This document shows positions 3,995 to 36,313 of a stretch of DNA of 64,000 nucleotides, in pieces (within the stretch, counting starts at the first letter, position 1; every line of letters starts with the position of its first letter). The translations under genes and the position numbers were made by a program. A model generated the notes under the pieces. That model was not told where the DNA came from and did not search any database. It was given only the letters and a program-made list of their open reading frames with translations. Source of the DNA: an uncultured Bacilli bacterium (lineage in GTDB: Bacteria > Bacillota_I > Bacilli_A > RF39 > UBA660); contig CANRAF010000003.1 in NCBI GenBank assembly GCA_947628535.1, forward strand, positions 1 through 64,000, read 5' to 3'.

Positions 3995-4453
3995 ATGAAA
4001 TACAAATTTTTAGTGCCAATTGTACTTTCAATTTTGATTGGCTTATTTTTTGGAAAGATATTTTTTGATAATTATGATTCAAATTCTTTAACTGTTTTCG
4101 ATGAAAAAGATAAAGTTTATATGCTTCAGATAGGAGTTTATTCATCAAAAGAAAAAATGGCTTCATCTTTTAAAAACTATGAAAAGTATTTATATATTTC
4201 TAATGATGACGGATATCATTTGTATGTTGGAATAACAAAAAGTAAAGATTTAGCATCAAAAATTAAGGAATACTACGAAAAACTTGGTTATAGTATTTAT
4301 GTAAAAGAAAATATAATTGATAATCAATCTTTTCTCTCCGTACTCGGAGAATACGATAAAATTATTGATATAACCTCAAATAGTGATATTCCTGAAATAG
4401 AAAAGATTGTAATTTCAAATTACAAGGAGATGGTTTTAGAAAGTGAATCTTAA
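3995..4453 (+). CDS. Membrane-anchored SPOR-domain protein, SpoIIB-like
   Basis: N-terminal TM followed by a SPOR-like repeat (VYMLQIGVYSSKEKMASSFKNY...YHLYVGITKSKDLASKIKEYYEKLGYSIYVK); upstream of radC-mreCD as spoIIB is in Bacillus. Confidence 0.65.
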   Translation: MKYKFLVPIVLSILIGLFFGKIFFDNYDSNSLTVFDEKDKVYMLQIGVYSSKEKMASSFKNYEKYLYISNDDGYHLYVGITKSKDLASKIKEYYEKLGYSIYVKENIIDNQSFLSVLGEYDKIIDITSNSDIPEIEKIVISNYKEMVLESES

Positions 4454-5132
4454 AGAAGTGCCTATAGAAGAAAGACCTAGAGAAAAAATTTTAAAATATG
4501 GGAGAGAAAACCTTACGGATAGTGAACTTTTAGCAATAATTTTAAAAACAGGAGTTAAAAATGAAAATGTTTGTACTTTAGCATATAGAGTTATTAATGA
4601 AATAGGATCAGTTCAAAATTTAAAAAATATTACTTACTCTGATTTAGTTAAAATAAAAGGAATTGGAGATGCTAAAGCAACATCTCTTATGGCTCTTTCA
4701 GAACTTGCTAAAAGAATTTATTATAAAAAAAATGAATTAAAGGAAAAGTGTTTAAATCCAAAAACTATTTATGAAAATAATAGATATTTATTTGATAATT
4801 TAAAGCAAGAACACTTTTATTGTCTTTATTTAAACTCAAAAAAGGAACTTATAGAAAGGAAGTTATTATTTATGGGAACATTAAATCAAAGCGTAGTACA
4901 TCCAAGAGAAATATTTAAAGAAGCATATAAACTTTCTGCTTCCAGCATTGTTTGTCTTCATAATCACCCAAGTGGAAATGTTATGCCAAGTAGTGAAGAT
5001 ATACATCTTACAGAATCTTTAATAAAAATTGGAAAAATAAATGGTATCCCCGTAGTAGATCATTTAATTATTTCAGAAAACGGTTATTATAGTTTTTATG
5101 AAAATAAAGTAACTGAAGAGGATTTTGTATGA
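4443..5132 (+). CDS. radC: RadC/JAB-domain DNA repair-family protein
   Basis: PREKILKYGRENLTDSELLAIILKTG and CLHNHPSGNVMPSSEDIHLTE (JAMM motif); GTG start. Confidence 0.95.
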   Translation: MNLKEVPIEERPREKILKYGRENLTDSELLAIILKTGVKNENVCTLAYRVINEIGSVQNLKNITYSDLVKIKGIGDAKATSLMALSELAKRIYYKKNELKEKCLNPKTIYENNRYLFDNLKQEHFYCLYLNSKKELIERKLLFMGTLNQSVVHPREIFKEAYKLSASSIVCLHNHPSGNVMPSSEDIHLTESLIKIGKINGIPVVDHLIISENGYYSFYENKVTEEDFV

Positions 5133-5923
5133 AAAAACTTCATTGGTATTATAAGTTCTTAATAGTTTTTTTAATATTTTTTAGTATGTTTTTTTTACTT
5201 ACAGAAAATATGTCTAAAATTGTTAATTCTTCAGGTTATAAAAATTATGTTAATTTTATAAGTGTTCCTTTTAATTTTATCAATAAATATAATATTTTTA
5301 ATTATAGAAATGTTTTAAAACAAAATGATGAGTTAAGCAAAAAGATAATAGTTGTAAATACTACTGAAAGTGAAAGGGATAATCTTTTAAAAGAAGTAGA
5401 AGAACTTAGAAGTACACTTAAAATTAAAGATGTTTATACAAGTTATAAAAAAGTTTATTCTAAAGTAATACTTAGAAATAAAATGTATTGGTATAGCACA
5501 GTTACTATTGATAAAGGTAGCATCGATAATATAGAAGAGGGAGATGCTGTTATTAATAAAGATGGTTTAATTGGTAAAGTAAAAAATGTAACAAAGAATT
5601 ATAGTACAGTAAAATTAATAACAGATGAATCTTCTGAAAATAAGATTTCAACAGTTATCAATCTTAAAGATAAAAAACTTCATGGTACAATTATTGGTTA
5701 TGAATATCCATATATAAAAATAGAACTTATAACGGATAGTAAAGGGGTAAAAAAAGGAGATAAAGTATATACTTCTGGACTTGGTAATTTTCCTAAAAAT
5801 ATTTACATTGGAACTGTAGAAAAAATAGTTAAAGATAGTTTTGGCGTAAGTTATATTCTTTATGTTACACCTGCAAGTGACATGAATGATATAGGTTATG
5901 TAGCGGTGCTTAAAAGAAAATGA
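5129..5923 (+). CDS. mreC: Rod shape-determining protein MreC
   Basis: N-terminal TM, coiled coil, MreC beta domain; 4-nt overlap with radC; followed by mreD. Confidence 0.93.
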   Translation: MKKLHWYYKFLIVFLIFFSMFFLLTENMSKIVNSSGYKNYVNFISVPFNFINKYNIFNYRNVLKQNDELSKKIIVVNTTESERDNLLKEVEELRSTLKIKDVYTSYKKVYSKVILRNKMYWYSTVTIDKGSIDNIEEGDAVINKDGLIGKVKNVTKNYSTVKLITDESSENKISTVINLKDKKLHGTIIGYEYPYIKIELITDSKGVKKGDKVYTSGLGNFPKNIYIGTVEKIVKDSFGVSYILYVTPASDMNDIGYVAVLKRK

Positions 5924-6426
5924 TTTATTTACTTATATCAGCATTTTTAGATATACTTTTATCATTTAATATTCCATTAAATTTTGGAGATATTAACTAT
6001 TTTTTCCCAGCTTTATTTATAAGTTCTATTCCTATTAGTTATTTATTAATCAAAAGAAAAAGTCTTTTTTTCACTTTAATTATTTTAATTTCTATTATTT
6101 ATGATGCTTTATTTAGTGATATTATCTTTATAAATGTTTATTATGTAGTTTTATATGGACTATTTTTAAATATTTTTTATAAAAACAAAAAGGGAAGTTA
6201 TTTAAATATTTTTTTAATCTCTATTATGGGAGTTATTTTTTATGATATATTTATATTCTTTACTTTAATTCTTTTAAAATATGAAACTTTCAAAATAGGA
6301 TTTTTAGGCTATAAAATTTCTAGGACGCTTCTTTTAAATAGTATATATATAATAATTTCTATTATTATATTTAGAAGTCGAATATTTAGAGAAAAAAGAA
6401 AAAGAAAAAAGTTTTACTATAAGTAA
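5920..6426 (+). CDS. mreD: Rod shape-determining protein MreD
   Basis: Small polytopic membrane protein overlapping the mreC stop by 4 nt. Confidence 0.85.
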   Translation: MIYLLISAFLDILLSFNIPLNFGDINYFFPALFISSIPISYLLIKRKSLFFTLIILISIIYDALFSDIIFINVYYVVLYGLFLNIFYKNKKGSYLNIFLISIMGVIFYDIFIFFTLILLKYETFKIGFLGYKISRTLLLNSIYIIISIIIFRSRIFREKRKRKKFYYK

Positions 6427-6457
6427 GTTCTTCATAATATGTGATAGGTGATATATT

Positions 6458-7054
6458 ATGAAATACAAACAAGTAGAAAAGTTTTTAAATAAAAATAAGA
6501 AAAAGAAAAAAGGGAAAAGCTTTTTTTATAAATTTATGATAAGGGCATGTATTTGCATTTTAATAGTGCTTGTAGGCCTTGTGTTTTTAAAATATGATAA
6601 GAATAACAAGCAAATAATATATAGGTATTTATACGAAAATAATATTAATTTTGCAACACTTAATAAATGGTATACAGAGCATTTCGGAGATATTGTACCA
6701 TTTCAAAATATGGTAAAAGATAATACTGAACTTGTATTTAATGAAAATTTATCTTATAAAGATGCAAGTGTTTATAAAAATGGAGTTAAATTAAATGTTG
6801 AAGATAATTATTTAGTGCCAATTATTGAAAGTGGAATAGTAGTCTTTATTGGTAATAAAGATGATTTTGGAAAGACAGTAATAATTGAACAAACAGATGG
6901 AGTTGATGTTTGGTATGGTAATGTTACTAATATAAATGTTAGTTTATATGACTATGTATCGAAAGGAGAGTTTTTAGCAGAAGCAAATGGAAGTTTTTAT
7001 ATGGCATTTCAAAAAGATGGGAAATATATAAAATATCAAGACTATCTTAAATAA
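6458..7054 (+). CDS. spoIVFA: SpoIVFA-like M23-type membrane protein
   Basis: N-terminal TM, degenerate LytM/M23-like C-terminal domain (VVFIGNKDDFGKTVIIEQTDGVDVWYGN), immediately upstream of an M50 protease in the mreCD-spoIVF gene order. Confidence 0.75.
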   Translation: MKYKQVEKFLNKNKKKKKGKSFFYKFMIRACICILIVLVGLVFLKYDKNNKQIIYRYLYENNINFATLNKWYTEHFGDIVPFQNMVKDNTELVFNENLSYKDASVYKNGVKLNVEDNYLVPIIESGIVVFIGNKDDFGKTVIIEQTDGVDVWYGNVTNINVSLYDYVSKGEFLAEANGSFYMAFQKDGKYIKYQDYLK

Positions 7055-7109
7055 AATATATATTCATCCATTTACGTATCTTTTAATTTTTCTTTCGATT
7101 ATAACTGGA

Positions 7110-7793
7110 ATGTTTAAAGAGTTTTCTTATGTCTTCATAATTATTATAGTACATGAGATAGGACATTTAATTGCTGCTAAAATATGTTCTTGGAATTTTG
7201 ATAAAATTGAAGTTTATCCATTTGGGGGTTGTGTTAAATTAGATGATAAAATAAATAGATCAATGAAAGAAGAACTTTTTATTTTAATAGCAGGTCCAGT
7301 AATGCAAATATTATTTTTTTATGTTTGTTATCTTTTTTTAAATGAAGGATTTATAAGTTATAGAAACTTTTTAATTTTTAAAAATTATCACTATACATTA
7401 CTTATATTTAATCTTCTTCCAATTTATCCACTTGATGGTGGAAGAATTCTAAATATTATAATAAATTTTTTTATGCCTTTTAAAAAAAGCAACAAAATAA
7501 CAATATGTTTATCATTTCTTTTGATATTTAGCCTTTTGTTTTTTTATAAGAGTTTAAACTTTACTTTGATGGGAATTCTTCTTATAACAGAACTTATAGT
7601 TTATTTTAAAAGACAAGATTTTTTATATAATAAAATGCTTCTTGAAAGATTTATAAATCCATTTAAATTTAAAAAGATGAAAATAATTAAAAATAAAGAT
7701 AATATGTATAAAGATAAAAGGCATATAATTTTATATAAAGATAAATATATTACAGAAAAGGAATACTTAAAGGAAAGATTTAAGGTGAGATAA
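7110..7793 (+). CDS. spoIVFB: SpoIVFB-like site-2 protease (M50); true start probably upstream of 7110
   Basis: HEIGHLIAA zinc motif, LPIYPLDGGRIL second metal motif, FGGCVKLDD; in-frame upstream sequence KIYIHPFTYLLIFLSIITG matches the SpoIVFB N-terminus. Confidence 0.88.
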   Translation: MFKEFSYVFIIIIVHEIGHLIAAKICSWNFDKIEVYPFGGCVKLDDKINRSMKEELFILIAGPVMQILFFYVCYLFLNEGFISYRNFLIFKNYHYTLLIFNLLPIYPLDGGRILNIIINFFMPFKKSNKITICLSFLLIFSLLFFYKSLNFTLMGILLITELIVYFKRQDFLYNKMLLERFINPFKFKKMKIIKNKDNMYKDKRHIILYKDKYITEKEYLKERFKVR

Positions 7794-8992
7794 TGAAAAA
7801 AGTAATAGTTTTTTTAATAATAGTTTGTCTATTTTTCTTTATATTTAATATTTTAAAAAGCGAAGATGTAGAAGTTAAGGATAAAGAACAAAAACAAGAA
7901 GAGGCACGGGATAAGTTTTCTTTTGAAGAAAGAGGAGTATTTATCTCATATATAGATTATGGACATTTCAGAGGAAAAAGTAAAGATGAAATAGAAACAT
8001 TAATTACAGATATGGTTAATAATGTAAGTTATTTTGGCTTAAATTCTATTATTTTACAAGTAAGACCTTTTAGTGATGCTATTTATCCATCAGAAATATA
8101 TGAAAGTTCTCATACAGTTGTAAAAAATGAAGGTGATGAACTTCCCTTAGATATTTTAAAATATTTTATTGAAATATCTAAAGAGAAAAATATTGATGTT
8201 TATGCTTGGATTAATCCTTATAGAATAAGAAATGAAAATAATACTGGGGATATAAGTAAAAATTCTTATTATTATAAGTGGCTTGATACTAATTTAATAG
8301 AAAAAACAAAAGATGGAATATATTTAAATCCTGCGCGAAGTGAAGTTGTTGATTATATTACAGATGGAATAAAGGAACTATGTAAAAATTATGATATAAA
8401 AGGAGTTTTATTTGATGATTATTACTATCCTACAGATACAATTGATCTAGAAAATTATGAAAAAACAGATAAGAGTTTAAATTTAAAAGAGTATCGTATT
8501 AATAATATAAATAAACTTATCGAAGAAAGTTATAAAGCTGTAAAAAGTGTTAATAAAGAAATCAAATTTGGTCTTTCACCTGCGGGTAATATTGAAAATA
8601 ATTTAGATAAAGAGTATTTAGATGTTAAAAGTGTTTTGAAAAGTGATTACATAGATTTCATAATTCCACAACTCTATTATGGTTTTAGTAATAGTACTAA
8701 ACCTTATATAAGTACTTTAAATGATTGGAATGAGATAAATGTTAATAATAAAGATTTATATGTTGCACTTTCTCTTTATAAGTCAGGTAAAATAGATACT
8801 TTTGCAGGTAAAGGAGAAAATGAATGGATTGAAGAAAACGACATTATAAAAAAGCAGATAATAACAGCGAGAAACAAGAAAAATTATAAAGGATTCTATA
8901 TATTTAGATATGAATATTTGTTTAATATACATAATAACAATAATTTGGAAAAAGAAACTAAAAATTTAAAAGATTTAATTGACATAAGTTAA
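7793..8992 (+). CDS. Secreted/lipid-anchored GHL10 (DUF187, YngK-like) glycoside hydrolase
   Basis: N-terminal hydrophobic segment; ERGVFISYIDYGHF, LNSIILQVRPFSDAIYPSEIYESSH, VYAWINPYRIR, GLSPAGN motifs. Confidence 0.85.
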   Translation: MKKVIVFLIIVCLFFFIFNILKSEDVEVKDKEQKQEEARDKFSFEERGVFISYIDYGHFRGKSKDEIETLITDMVNNVSYFGLNSIILQVRPFSDAIYPSEIYESSHTVVKNEGDELPLDILKYFIEISKEKNIDVYAWINPYRIRNENNTGDISKNSYYYKWLDTNLIEKTKDGIYLNPARSEVVDYITDGIKELCKNYDIKGVLFDDYYYPTDTIDLENYEKTDKSLNLKEYRINNINKLIEESYKAVKSVNKEIKFGLSPAGNIENNLDKEYLDVKSVLKSDYIDFIIPQLYYGFSNSTKPYISTLNDWNEINVNNKDLYVALSLYKSGKIDTFAGKGENEWIEENDIIKKQIITARNKKNYKGFYIFRYEYLFNIHNNNNLEKETKNLKDLIDIS

Positions 8993-9014: not shown

Positions 9015-9076
9015 AAGTTTTATTTACATATATTATGTATTTTTGATATACTAAATATGATAATAGGAGTGGTTAT

Positions 9077-10957
9077 ATGAAAAAAGTGATGATGCTCGCG
9101 GGAATTTTTTCTGTTTTATTATTTGGCATTAATGTTTATGCTACTAATGGTATAAATCTTTCTTTAAGTTGTCCAAGTGAAGTAGAACCAAATTCAAGTT
9201 TTACATGCGGATTATATGCTACAGTAACAGGGAATAATGTTGATAGCTTTAAAATTACTAGTATAAAAGGTGAAGATGGGGTTAAATATATAAGTCATCA
9301 AGTAGATAGTTCTATTGGTAAAACTTCTAATAAAAAGATAGGTACTGTAAATGCAAAATCTAAAAATGTAAGTGGTGGCGGGAGAATAATAATCAAATAT
9401 AAAGCTGAATTTGAAGGTGGTAGTACAAAATATTCAGATGTTGCAAAATATATAGATATAATAAGTTCAGTTAATACTTTAAACTCAATTAAAGTAGATG
9501 GTAAAACAGTTTCTAATTTTTCAAAAACTACTACTAATTATGCTTTAACTACTACTAAATCAAAAGTAAGTATAACTGCTACTAGAACAAGTTCTAAATC
9601 AACTTTAACAGGTACAGGCACTAAAAATTTAAAGTGTGGGAATAATGTTAATGTGTTATCAGTACGTGCAGAAAATGGAAAAGTTAAAAAATATAGTGTA
9701 AATGTAAATAGAAAATGTAGTAATAATGCTTATTTAAAAGGAATTACTATATCTGAAGGAACTTTATCTCCAGCATTTAAAGAAGATGTTTATGATTATA
9801 CAGTTAACGTTGATAAAAACACTAAAACAATAACTGTTACAGGTATCAAAGATGATGCTGCACAAAAGATTACAGGGGAAGTTACTAATAAGAAATTAAC
9901 GTATGGAAAAAATAAAGTTTCTTTAATTGTAACAAGTCAAACAGGAGGAACCAAAACCTATAATATTGTCATAAATAAAAAAGATGATAGGAGTTCTAGC
10001 ACACAACTTAAAAGCCTTACTTTAAGTGAAGGAGATATTGAATTTGATAAAAATGTTTATGAATACGAAACAAAAGTTTTGTATGATGTAAAAAATATTG
10101 TTGTAACAGCACTTCCTGAAGATGAAAAGTCAAAAGTAGAAATAACAGGAAATGAAAATTTAAAGGTTGGAGAAAATATAATTACTATTTTAGTAAAATC
10201 GGAAAAGGGCTCTAAAAGTGAATATAAAATTAAAGTAACAAAATTAGAAGAAGGAGCTACTTTTGGAGACAATGCTAATATTAAAAACATTACTATAAAA
10301 GGATATAAATTTCCTTTTGATTATAATAAATATGACTATAAATTAGTTATTAATAGAGAGAATTCTTTAGATATAAATGTAGTAATGGATGATGAAAGTG
10401 CAACTTATGAGATAAAGGGAAATGAAAATTTAAAAGATGGAAGTGTAATTGAGATAATTACAAAGTCCAACGATGGTAGTTCAAAAACATATACAATTAC
10501 TGTAACTAAATCAAGTTATGCTATATATTATATAATTTCTGGTATTTTAGTAGCTTTAGCAATTTTAATACCAACGTTAGTCTATTTTAAATCAGTTAAA
10601 AAGAAAAAAGAACTTTTAGATGTAAATGGTTATAAAGTAGGAAAAGAATATGAAGAAAAAGATTATTCCAGAAAAGTAATTAGTAATACGAGTGATAATA
10701 CTTTAAATGATTCATCAATTAATACAAATCAGATTAGTCAAAATAGTGGTGATGATAGCAATATAGGTAATATGAATAAATTAGTTTATAGTTCTTTTGA
10801 TTCCATACAAAATTCTAATGTTAATGATAGTAATATGACTCAAGAGCAAGTTATGACAGATAATATAAATCAATCTGTTAATTCATGTCCTAATTGTGGG
10901 AGAGAGCTTTTAGGAACTCCTGATATATGCCCTTATTGCAGTGCAAAATTAAGATAA
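9077..10957 (+). CDS. Signal-peptide surface protein with cadherin-like beta-sandwich repeats, C-terminal TM and cytosolic zinc ribbon
   Basis: Signal peptide; repeated 'L..I.(L)SEG...F....Y.Y...V......I.VT' modules (cadherin-like PF12733 type); TM IYYIISGILVALAILIPTLVYF; terminal CPNCGRELLGTPDICPYC. Confidence 0.75.
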   Translation: MKKVMMLAGIFSVLLFGINVYATNGINLSLSCPSEVEPNSSFTCGLYATVTGNNVDSFKITSIKGEDGVKYISHQVDSSIGKTSNKKIGTVNAKSKNVSGGGRIIIKYKAEFEGGSTKYSDVAKYIDIISSVNTLNSIKVDGKTVSNFSKTTTNYALTTTKSKVSITATRTSSKSTLTGTGTKNLKCGNNVNVLSVRAENGKVKKYSVNVNRKCSNNAYLKGITISEGTLSPAFKEDVYDYTVNVDKNTKTITVTGIKDDAAQKITGEVTNKKLTYGKNKVSLIVTSQTGGTKTYNIVINKKDDRSSSTQLKSLTLSEGDIEFDKNVYEYETKVLYDVKNIVVTALPEDEKSKVEITGNENLKVGENIITILVKSEKGSKSEYKIKVTKLEEGATFGDNANIKNITIKGYKFPFDYNKYDYKLVINRENSLDINVVMDDESATYEIKGNENLKDGSVIEIITKSNDGSSKTYTITVTKSSYAIYYIISGILVALAILIPTLVYFKSVKKKKELLDVNGYKVGKEYEEKDYSRKVISNTSDNTLNDSSINTNQISQNSGDDSNIGNMNKLVYSSFDSIQNSNVNDSNMTQEQVMTDNINQSVNSCPNCGRELLGTPDICPYCSAKLR

Positions 10958-10980
10958 ATTAAAAAATGAGGAGGAGAAAA

Positions 10981-12090
10981 ATGATATATAACAATAAAAA
11001 GAAAGCTATAGTGTTAATAGTAATTATAATTATAATAATATTATGTGGTTTAATAAGTAGTTATTTTATATTTACTAAAGATGATAATAAGGTATCAACA
11101 GAAAAAGTTGAAAATACTCAAAGTAGATATACAAAGGACTATTTGCTTTCAAATAATTATATTAAAGAATTAGATAAAGCATTAACAAATGATCTTGCTT
11201 GTAATTCTGAAAATATAGGTAAGGCTTATATATATTTCAATAATGAAGATGTTTATTTTAAAATATGTACAAAAAATGGTTTAACTAGTGAAAAATTAAA
11301 TGATGATATTCTTGCAAAGGATGTTTATTATAATGAAAAAAGTGATAAAGAAGGTACTCGTATTTGGGAGATAGTTATTTTTGATGATGTAAATGCCTAT
11401 TATTCTTTAATTACTTTAGATTCTAATAGTTATAAATTCAAATATGAAAATCAATTTAATAATTATAAGATAGAAAATATAAAAGCAGTTTATAAATTAG
11501 ATTATGAAAAACCATATTCATATAATAATACAACTAATCAAATTATATTTGAACAAAATAATAATTCTAATCAACTTGTATATTTGTTAGAGGGGATTCC
11601 TATACCAATTAACGATGCAATTCCATATTTTGATTATGTTTGTGTAGATAATAATCCAATATGTATAGACACTAAAATATATATAACAGATGATATGATG
11701 CTCTCGCCATATTATAATATTTATGGAACTTTTAAAACAAATAGTGGCGATAATCTTGTTATAAAAGATGTTTTTACTTCTTTTAAAATAATAGGAGATA
11801 GTGATGTAACAGGTAAATGGGTTAATAGTGATGATTTGAAGTTTGATTATAATATATATGCTTTAGGAAAAGACAATAATCTTTATACTTTAAAACTTAA
11901 TAATAAATTATTAGAGGAACAAAGTATGAAACCTTTTGATTTGCATAAACAAGGTGTTTCTAGTATTGAATACACAAAATCAAGTTTAAGAGAGGGTTTC
12001 AGCAATGTAACTATAAAATATGATGATGGGACTCAGGAAATAATTAGTAGAGTTTTAACTTCAACATTACATGATAGAGAAAATAGTTAA
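10981..12090 (+). CDS. Membrane-anchored extracytoplasmic protein of unknown function
   Basis: Start at 10981 after RBS GAGGAGG; one N-terminal TM followed by a ~330 aa extracytoplasmic domain. Confidence 0.6.
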   Translation: MIYNNKKKAIVLIVIIIIIILCGLISSYFIFTKDDNKVSTEKVENTQSRYTKDYLLSNNYIKELDKALTNDLACNSENIGKAYIYFNNEDVYFKICTKNGLTSEKLNDDILAKDVYYNEKSDKEGTRIWEIVIFDDVNAYYSLITLDSNSYKFKYENQFNNYKIENIKAVYKLDYEKPYSYNNTTNQIIFEQNNNSNQLVYLLEGIPIPINDAIPYFDYVCVDNNPICIDTKIYITDDMMLSPYYNIYGTFKTNSGDNLVIKDVFTSFKIIGDSDVTGKWVNSDDLKFDYNIYALGKDNNLYTLKLNNKLLEEQSMKPFDLHKQGVSSIEYTKSSLREGFSNVTIKYDDGTQEIISRVLTSTLHDRENS

Positions 12091-12122
12091 AAGTACATGG
12101 TTTTATACTATGTACTTTTTTA
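12090..12122 (+). terminator. Rho-independent terminator
   Basis: AAAGTACAT / ATGTACTTT stem with T-run. Confidence 0.8.
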
Positions 12123-35959: not shown

Positions 35960-36313
35960 ATGAGTAAATTTTGTTCTAATTGTGGTACTGAAATTAAGAA
36001 AGGTGCTTCGTTTTGTTCAAACTGCGGAAAAGAATTAAAAGAGGCGACTTCAGTAAGTCAAGAAGAAACTCAAACTGAATATGTTCAAAAATCAAGACTT
36101 GCAGGCGGTCTTTTAGGAGTCTTTTTAGGATCTCTTGGGGTACACAATTTTTATTTAGGTTATACTGGTAAAGCCGTAGCACAACTTTTAATTACTGTTC
36201 TTTCATGTTGGTTTCTATTTCCTGTATCAGGAATTTGGGGATTAATTGAAGGAATACTTATTTTGACTGGTTCAATTAATGTTGATGCTGAAGGAAGAAA
36301 ATTAATTGACTAA
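35960..36313 (+). CDS. Zinc-ribbon plus TM2-domain protein
   Basis: CSNCGTEIKKGASFCSNCGKEL then SRLAGGLLGVFLGSLGVHNFYLGYTGKAVAQLLITV. Confidence 0.9.
   Translation: MSKFCSNCGTEIKKGASFCSNCGKELKEATSVSQEETQTEYVQKSRLAGGLLGVFLGSLGVHNFYLGYTGKAVAQLLITVLSCWFLFPVSGIWGLIEGILILTGSINVDAEGRKLID

What the first reader, a model, noticed from the sequence alone, without database searches (positions are those of the whole stretch)
9077..12090. Cadherin-like surface protein with a cytosolic zinc-ribbon tail, plus an adjacent membrane-anchored partner
The 626-aa protein combines a signal peptide, several cadherin-like beta-sandwich repeats, a TM, a ~120-aa Asn/Ser-rich cytosolic linker and a terminal CxxC-x10-CxxC zinc ribbon. 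Adhesive exterior and metal-ribbon interior would fit a transmembrane sensor or scaffold. The next gene, 23 nt downstream, encodes a single-TM extracytoplasmic protein and may be its partner.
Basis: partly seen in the sequence, partly recalled or inferred. Interest (0 to 1): 0.6.

Follow-up and report, generated by a model that had tools for sequence, protein, structure and literature searches.

The report
Zinc-ribbon-tailed cadherin-like surface protein
A small-genome Bacilli bacterium makes a membrane-anchored surface rod of cadherin-like domains whose inner tail ends in a conserved zinc-binding knuckle; the neighbouring gene that looked like its partner is almost certainly not one.

Summary
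The 626-aa protein is as described: signal peptide, N-terminal beta-sandwich, four cadherin-like (PF12733-type) sandwiches, one TM, a 94-aa Asn/Ser-rich tail and a terminal CxxC-x10-CxxC ribbon. The ribbon is real. Its four cysteines are invariant in nine proteins from five genera, while the linker between TM and ribbon is 14-15% identical within the genus. In the window's own clade (six proteins, three genera) every member has it. Ribbon tails also occur in two other branches, so gain or loss happened more than once. It is the only membrane protein in this genome with a cytosolic C-terminal ribbon.

The partner claim fails. In both same-genus orthologs the next gene is an unrelated one (RlmD/TrmA-like). 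Gene 2 belongs to a genus-restricted orphan family whose usual place is downstream of gpr-spoIIP. The window carries an extra copy that landed behind the cadherin gene, with which it is probably co-transcribed in this species only.

Best reading: a vegetatively expressed type I surface protein. The tip diverges fast; the membrane-proximal domain, TM and ribbon are conserved, suggesting a flexible cytosolic tether that docks an unidentified partner. Known parallels (TcaA, YdjG) carry the ribbon at the other terminus. Verdict: new variant of a known kind, modest interest.

The parts
9023..9052 (+). housekeeping-type promoter TTTACA-18-TATACT of the cadherin gene
   Evidence: 10 of 12 matches, TG before -10; same TTTACA-17/18-TATACT/TATAAT upstream of orthologs in G002, G004, G031, G126, G245
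9077..10957 (+). ribbon-tailed cadherin-like type I membrane protein, 626 aa
   Evidence: ORF, Pfam PF12733 E 1.8e-26, orthologs
9077..9148 (+). signal peptide, aa 1-24
   Evidence: hydrophobic stretch 2-23; sequence reading
9149..9460 (+). N-terminal beta-sandwich (tip), aa 25-128, with C32/C44 pair; fast diverging
   Evidence: AlphaFold (moderate pLDDT), identity 35/30/22/15% to orthologs
9461..9718 (+). cadherin-like sandwich 1, aa 129-214, with cysteine pair C187/C214 that is present or absent together
9725..9979 (+). cadherin-like sandwich 2, aa 217-301
   Evidence: PF12733 match over cut-off, model
9998..10246 (+). cadherin-like sandwich 3, aa 308-390
   Evidence: PF12733 best stretch 311-389, model
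10268..10510 (+). cadherin-like sandwich 4, membrane-proximal, aa 398-478; most conserved ectodomain part (65% in genus)
10511..10600 (+). transmembrane helix, aa 479-508, followed by lysines (stop-transfer)
10601..10879 (+). disordered Asn/Ser-rich cytosolic linker, aa 509-601
   Evidence: pLDDT under 50; N+S 33% over aa 509-602; 14-15% identical to genus orthologs from aa 531 on
10880..10954 (+). C-terminal zinc ribbon C604-x2-C607-x10-C618-x2-C621
   Evidence: four cysteines invariant in 9 of 9; 68-76% identity in genus
10969..10976 (+). ribosome-binding site AGGAGGAG of gene 2
   Evidence: sequence reading
10981..12090 (+). gene 2: 369-aa single-TM extracytoplasmic orphan protein; extra paralog of a gpr-spoIIP-linked gene; not a conserved partner
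12091..12121 (+). likely transcription terminator (11-bp hairpin and T run) ending the cadherin-gene 2 transcript
   Evidence: hairpin -12 kcal/mol; not flagged by the G+C-based scan

Best explanation
A vegetatively expressed type I membrane protein of the Gram-positive envelope. Shown by sequence and model: signal peptide, a rod of five beta-sandwiches, one TM, a disordered tail and a conserved zinc ribbon. Inferred: the rod crosses the wall and presents its fast-evolving N-terminal domain to the surroundings (adhesion or ligand binding). The membrane-proximal sandwich, TM and ribbon do the conserved work: the ribbon, on a flexible tether of very variable length, docks a cytosolic partner and so ties the surface rod to something inside the cell. 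Gene 2 is not part of this; it is a species-specific extra copy of a paralog.
For: Four ribbon cysteines invariant in 9 proteins of 5 genera while linkers vary widely in length. Identity to the two genus orthologs climbs from the outer to the inner part of the exterior, 35/30, 32/25, 44/38, 57/54, 65/65%, is 15/14% in the linker and 68/76% in the ribbon. Model of tandem sandwiches, TM, disorder; Foldseek matches include surface-layer, adhesin and Rib-domain tandem sandwiches (low TM-scores, so fold class only). C187/C214 occur together or not at all across the alignment, as expected of an exported disulphide. Housekeeping-type promoter conserved in three genera. The only C-terminal-ribbon membrane protein among 935 ORFs of the genome.
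Against: No ligand or cytosolic partner is identified. Neighbourhoods differ in every genus, so context gives no clue. A same-genus genome that is 95% complete (G001) has no ortholog, so it is dispensable. Other cadherin-like membrane proteins of the family do without a ribbon. Zinc binding was not shown.
Confidence: 0.55

Rival explanations
1. Transmembrane sensor processed by intramembrane proteolysis: the SpoIVFB-like M50 protease encoded two genes upstream cuts the TM after ectodomain engagement and frees the ribbon tail as a cytosolic signal.
For: An M23 (SpoIVFA-like) and an M50 (SpoIVFB-like) gene lie just upstream in all three genus members that carry the gene.
Against: The cadherin gene has its own conserved promoter. 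In G031, G126 and G245 the GHL10 gene (with the M50 gene next to it in G031 and G245) lies elsewhere, away from the cadherin gene. GHL10 was not found in G146, G293, G199. The protein is N-out, C-in, whereas classical site-2 substrates are mostly N-in (established knowledge).
Confidence: 0.12
2. Plain TM-anchored adhesin: only the outside matters and the ribbon merely caps or stabilises the tail, or guards against degradation.
For: Many related cadherin-like proteins of the family end shortly after the TM or have N-rich tails without a ribbon, and the ectodomain resembles adhesins.
Against: Invariant cysteines across five genera, and ribbon tails on three separate branches of the tree.
Confidence: 0.25
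3. The cadherin protein and gene 2 form a two-component surface complex.
For: 23-nt gap, same strand, no hairpin between the genes and a hairpin terminator after gene 2.
Against: Adjacency is unique to this species. Gene 2's relatives sit downstream of gpr-spoIIP in G000, G002, G003 and G004. No gene 2 relative outside the genus in 243 genomes of the family.
Confidence: 0.05

Closest known systems
PF12733 cadherin-like surface proteins of gut Bacilli/Clostridia (TM-anchored or giant)
   Same: Tandem cadherin-like sandwiches, signal peptide, often a C-terminal TM; clear sequence homology
   Different: Most relatives seen here lack the ribbon tail (29 of 38 in the tree)
TcaA of Staphylococcus aureus (PMC10328498: single span, intracellular zinc finger, bulk outside)
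   Same: One TM, cytosolic zinc finger, large exterior
   Different: From my own knowledge, the TcaA finger is N-terminal (type II); here it is C-terminal behind a signal-peptide ectodomain (type I), and Pfam names only cadherin-like domains outside
YdjG/YdjL and PspC-ZnR proteins of envelope stress systems (PMC11237479)
   Same: Zinc ribbons attached to membrane-associated proteins that act at the envelope
   Different: No PspA, band-7 or TPM neighbours recognised near the cadherin gene here; different topology and ectodomain
Classical (animal) cadherins
   Same: Distant fold class after which the Pfam family is named
   Different: No LDRE or DxNDN calcium motifs in the sequence; no evidence for calcium-dependent homophilic adhesion

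Membership tests
PF12733 cadherin-like beta-sandwich proteins | Score above the curated cut-off | tested here: met
   92.9 bits against 24.2, four stretches
PF12733 cadherin-like beta-sandwich proteins | Tandem beta-sandwich structure | tested here: met
   AlphaFold model, four sandwiches at pLDDT mostly 80-95
Classical cadherins | LDRE / DxNDN calcium-binding motifs at repeat junctions | tested here: not met
   Neither motif in the 626 aa (reading)
TcaA / YdjG type ribbon membrane proteins | Cytosolic zinc ribbon, single TM, large exterior | tested here: met
   Topology inferred from signal peptide, TM and following lysines; ribbon invariant
TcaA / YdjG type ribbon membrane proteins | Ribbon N-terminal, type II topology | tested here: not met
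   Ribbon is at the very C-terminus, behind a signal peptide and TM
TcaA / YdjG type ribbon membrane proteins | Homologous ectodomain | tested here: not met
   Pfam returns only cadherin-like over its cut-off for the exterior, NCBIfam nothing over a cut-off; no direct comparison with TcaA was made
Zinc ribbon (DZR / Zn_Ribbon_1 group) | CxxC-xn-CxxC knuckles | tested here: met
   Four cysteines, 9 of 9 proteins; profile scores below curated cut-offs
Zinc ribbon (DZR / Zn_Ribbon_1 group) | Binds zinc | not testable with these tools
   Needs metal analysis of the expressed tail
Two-gene complex with gene 2 | Conserved adjacency or co-occurrence | tested here: not met

The most novel reading that the evidence does not exclude
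A class of outside-in receptors of small-genome gut Bacilli in which a cadherin-like ectodomain signals through a tethered C-terminal zinc ribbon, a tail acquired repeatedly by this surface-protein family to recruit one common cytosolic partner.
Probability: 0.15. Interest if true: 0.55.

Novelty: new variant of a known kind. Interest (0 to 1): 0.3.

Why it matters
Small-genome, uncultured gut Bacilli carry many cadherin-like surface proteins of unknown role. A subset with a conserved cytosolic zinc hook is a handle for finding what ties surface proteins to the cell interior. The gene 2 result is a caution: a 23-nt gap and a probable shared transcript did not mean partnership here.

Tried and rejected
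Gene 2 as partner: rejected by synteny and phyletic range. Gene 2 fold from its sequence alone: pLDDT 41.6, not usable, so no fold search was run on it. Sequence search of both families against solved structures: nothing significant. Foldseek with the whole model: only generic tandem sandwiches, TM-scores under 0.3 by query. Spore-specific expression of the cadherin gene: disfavoured, since the conserved promoter is of the housekeeping type. Sortase anchoring: the genome has four sortase matches, but the protein has no LPxTG and is predicted to end in the cytosol. Literature: no paper found in the held library on a cadherin-like protein with a zinc ribbon. Limits: tree membership came from a profile built on ribbon-bearing sequences; only the fetched loci were read for tails; outside the family the cadherin hits were mostly not read for tails.

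Full report
What is there. The window lies in a 933-kb assembly of 20 contigs; its named relatives are uncultured Bacilli/Tenericutes/Firmicutes MAGs, including goat-omasum material. The ORF at 9077-10957 encodes 626 aa and the next, best started at 10981, encodes 369 aa. Pfam recognises cadherin-like repeats (PF12733, E 1.8e-26) in the first and nothing credible in the second. An AlphaFold model from four orthologs shows an N-terminal sandwich, four cadherin-like sandwiches, one TM helix at 482-507, disorder from 504 to 601 and the ribbon at the end.

The ribbon is conserved. Orthologs in the genus (G002, G004) and in G031 keep it. A search of 386 genomes of the family, a motif scan of the retrieved loci and an alignment of nine proteins from five genera show C604, C607, C618 and C621 invariant. 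Between the TM and the ribbon the linker varies freely in length and is 14-15% identical to the genus orthologs, while the ribbon is 68-76% identical within the genus; outside it little more than the cysteines remains (24-29%). In a tree of 38 related ectodomains, the window's clade of six (98/95 support) is all ribbon-bearing. Two other places (G146; G293 with G199) also carry ribbons, and at least two changes are forced by supported branches. Base rate: among 935 ORFs read from the whole assembly, seven have both a predicted TM and a CxxC..CxxC motif. In five the ribbon is N-terminal to the TM, one is a multi-span protein (prepilin-peptidase-like by sequence reading), and only the window's protein has it C-terminal behind a signal peptide.

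Topology and constraint. A signal peptide, a lysine-rich stretch after the TM, and exterior cysteines that come in pairs support N-out, C-in: C187 and C214 are both present in four of the nine proteins and both absent in five. Identity to the two genus orthologs is low in the outer two domains and rises towards the membrane (35/30, 32/25, 44/38, 57/54, 65/65%). I read this as an environment-facing tip and a conserved membrane-proximal and cytosolic module. That is inference.

Expression. A TTTACA-18-TATACT site at 9023-9052 is the best promoter match upstream of the gene. A matching site occurs upstream of the orthologs in G002, G004, G031, G126 and G245, i.e. in three genera. The scan alone would be no evidence (25 found, 29 expected by chance); the conservation is. 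So the gene is probably transcribed by itself from a housekeeping promoter, not as part of the upstream cluster.

Neighbourhood. Upstream lies radC - mreC - (mreD position) - M23 - M50 - GHL10, in the order known from Bacillus for radC, mreCD and spoIVFA-spoIVFB (established knowledge). In the genus the cadherin gene follows GHL10 in G000, G002 and G004; in G001 it is missing there. In G126 and G245 the ribbon-tailed gene instead precedes rpsO-pnp-like genes, in G146 it lies near recA, in G293 by a thioredoxin-like gene (these names by sequence reading). There is no conserved neighbour outside the genus.

Gene 2. In G002 and G004 the gene after the cadherin gene is an RlmD/TrmA-like one (named by sequence reading), not gene 2. 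Relatives of gene 2 sit downstream of gpr and spoIIP (Pfam-confirmed in the window's genome) in G000, G002, G003 and G004 (profile E 1e-112); in G001 the contig ends too early to tell. Outside the genus no relative was found in a profile search of 243 family genomes. The window copy is 28-29% identical to the others. It is therefore an extra, diverged paralog placed behind the cadherin gene in this species. With no hairpin between the genes and one after gene 2, it is probably co-transcribed, which explains the first impression.

How it most likely works. Shown: architecture, conservation, promoter conservation, non-conservation of the pair. Inferred: the rod displays a divergent tip outside; the ribbon on its flexible line binds a cytosolic partner. 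TcaA of S. aureus is described as single-span with an intracellular zinc finger and most of the protein outside (PMC10328498), and zinc ribbons recur on envelope-stress membrane proteins (PMC11237479), so cytosolic ribbons on envelope proteins are a known kind of arrangement. The type I, C-terminal version on a cadherin-like rod is a variant I did not find described. Intramembrane proteolysis by the nearby M50 protease is possible but linked only inside the genus.

Verdict. Observation confirmed; partner interpretation not supported; sensor or scaffold idea open. A new variant of a known kind, interest 0.3.

Noticed in passing
window 4443-8992: radC - mreC - mreD position - M23 - M50 - GHL10 cluster kept across genera of the family, resembling the Bacillus radC-mre-spoIVFA-spoIVFB order in a 0.93-Mb genome.
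   Followed up: partly
L050 8046-11486 (G000 contig C2): Germination protease and SpoIIP genes in the same 0.93-Mb genome, followed by a 111-aa single-TM protein and the gene 2 relative; the 105-111-aa gene follows spoIIP in other genera too (G031, G126).
   Followed up: partly
L090 9129-11999: Near the ribbon-tailed gene of G126: SpoIIA-like, sporulation sigma-like and SpoVA-like genes by sequence reading.
   Followed up: no
window 35960-36313: N-terminal zinc ribbon followed by a TM2-like domain, one of five N-terminal-ribbon membrane proteins of the genome.
   Followed up: partly
family genomes (e.g. G272 C17, G248 C17): Giant open frames of 2000-7000 aa with cadherin-like repeats are common in the family and occur elsewhere in the class.
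   Followed up: no
L047 76-2364: G003 (same genus) has a related cadherin-like TM protein with a long Asn-rich tail but no zinc ribbon.
   Followed up: partly
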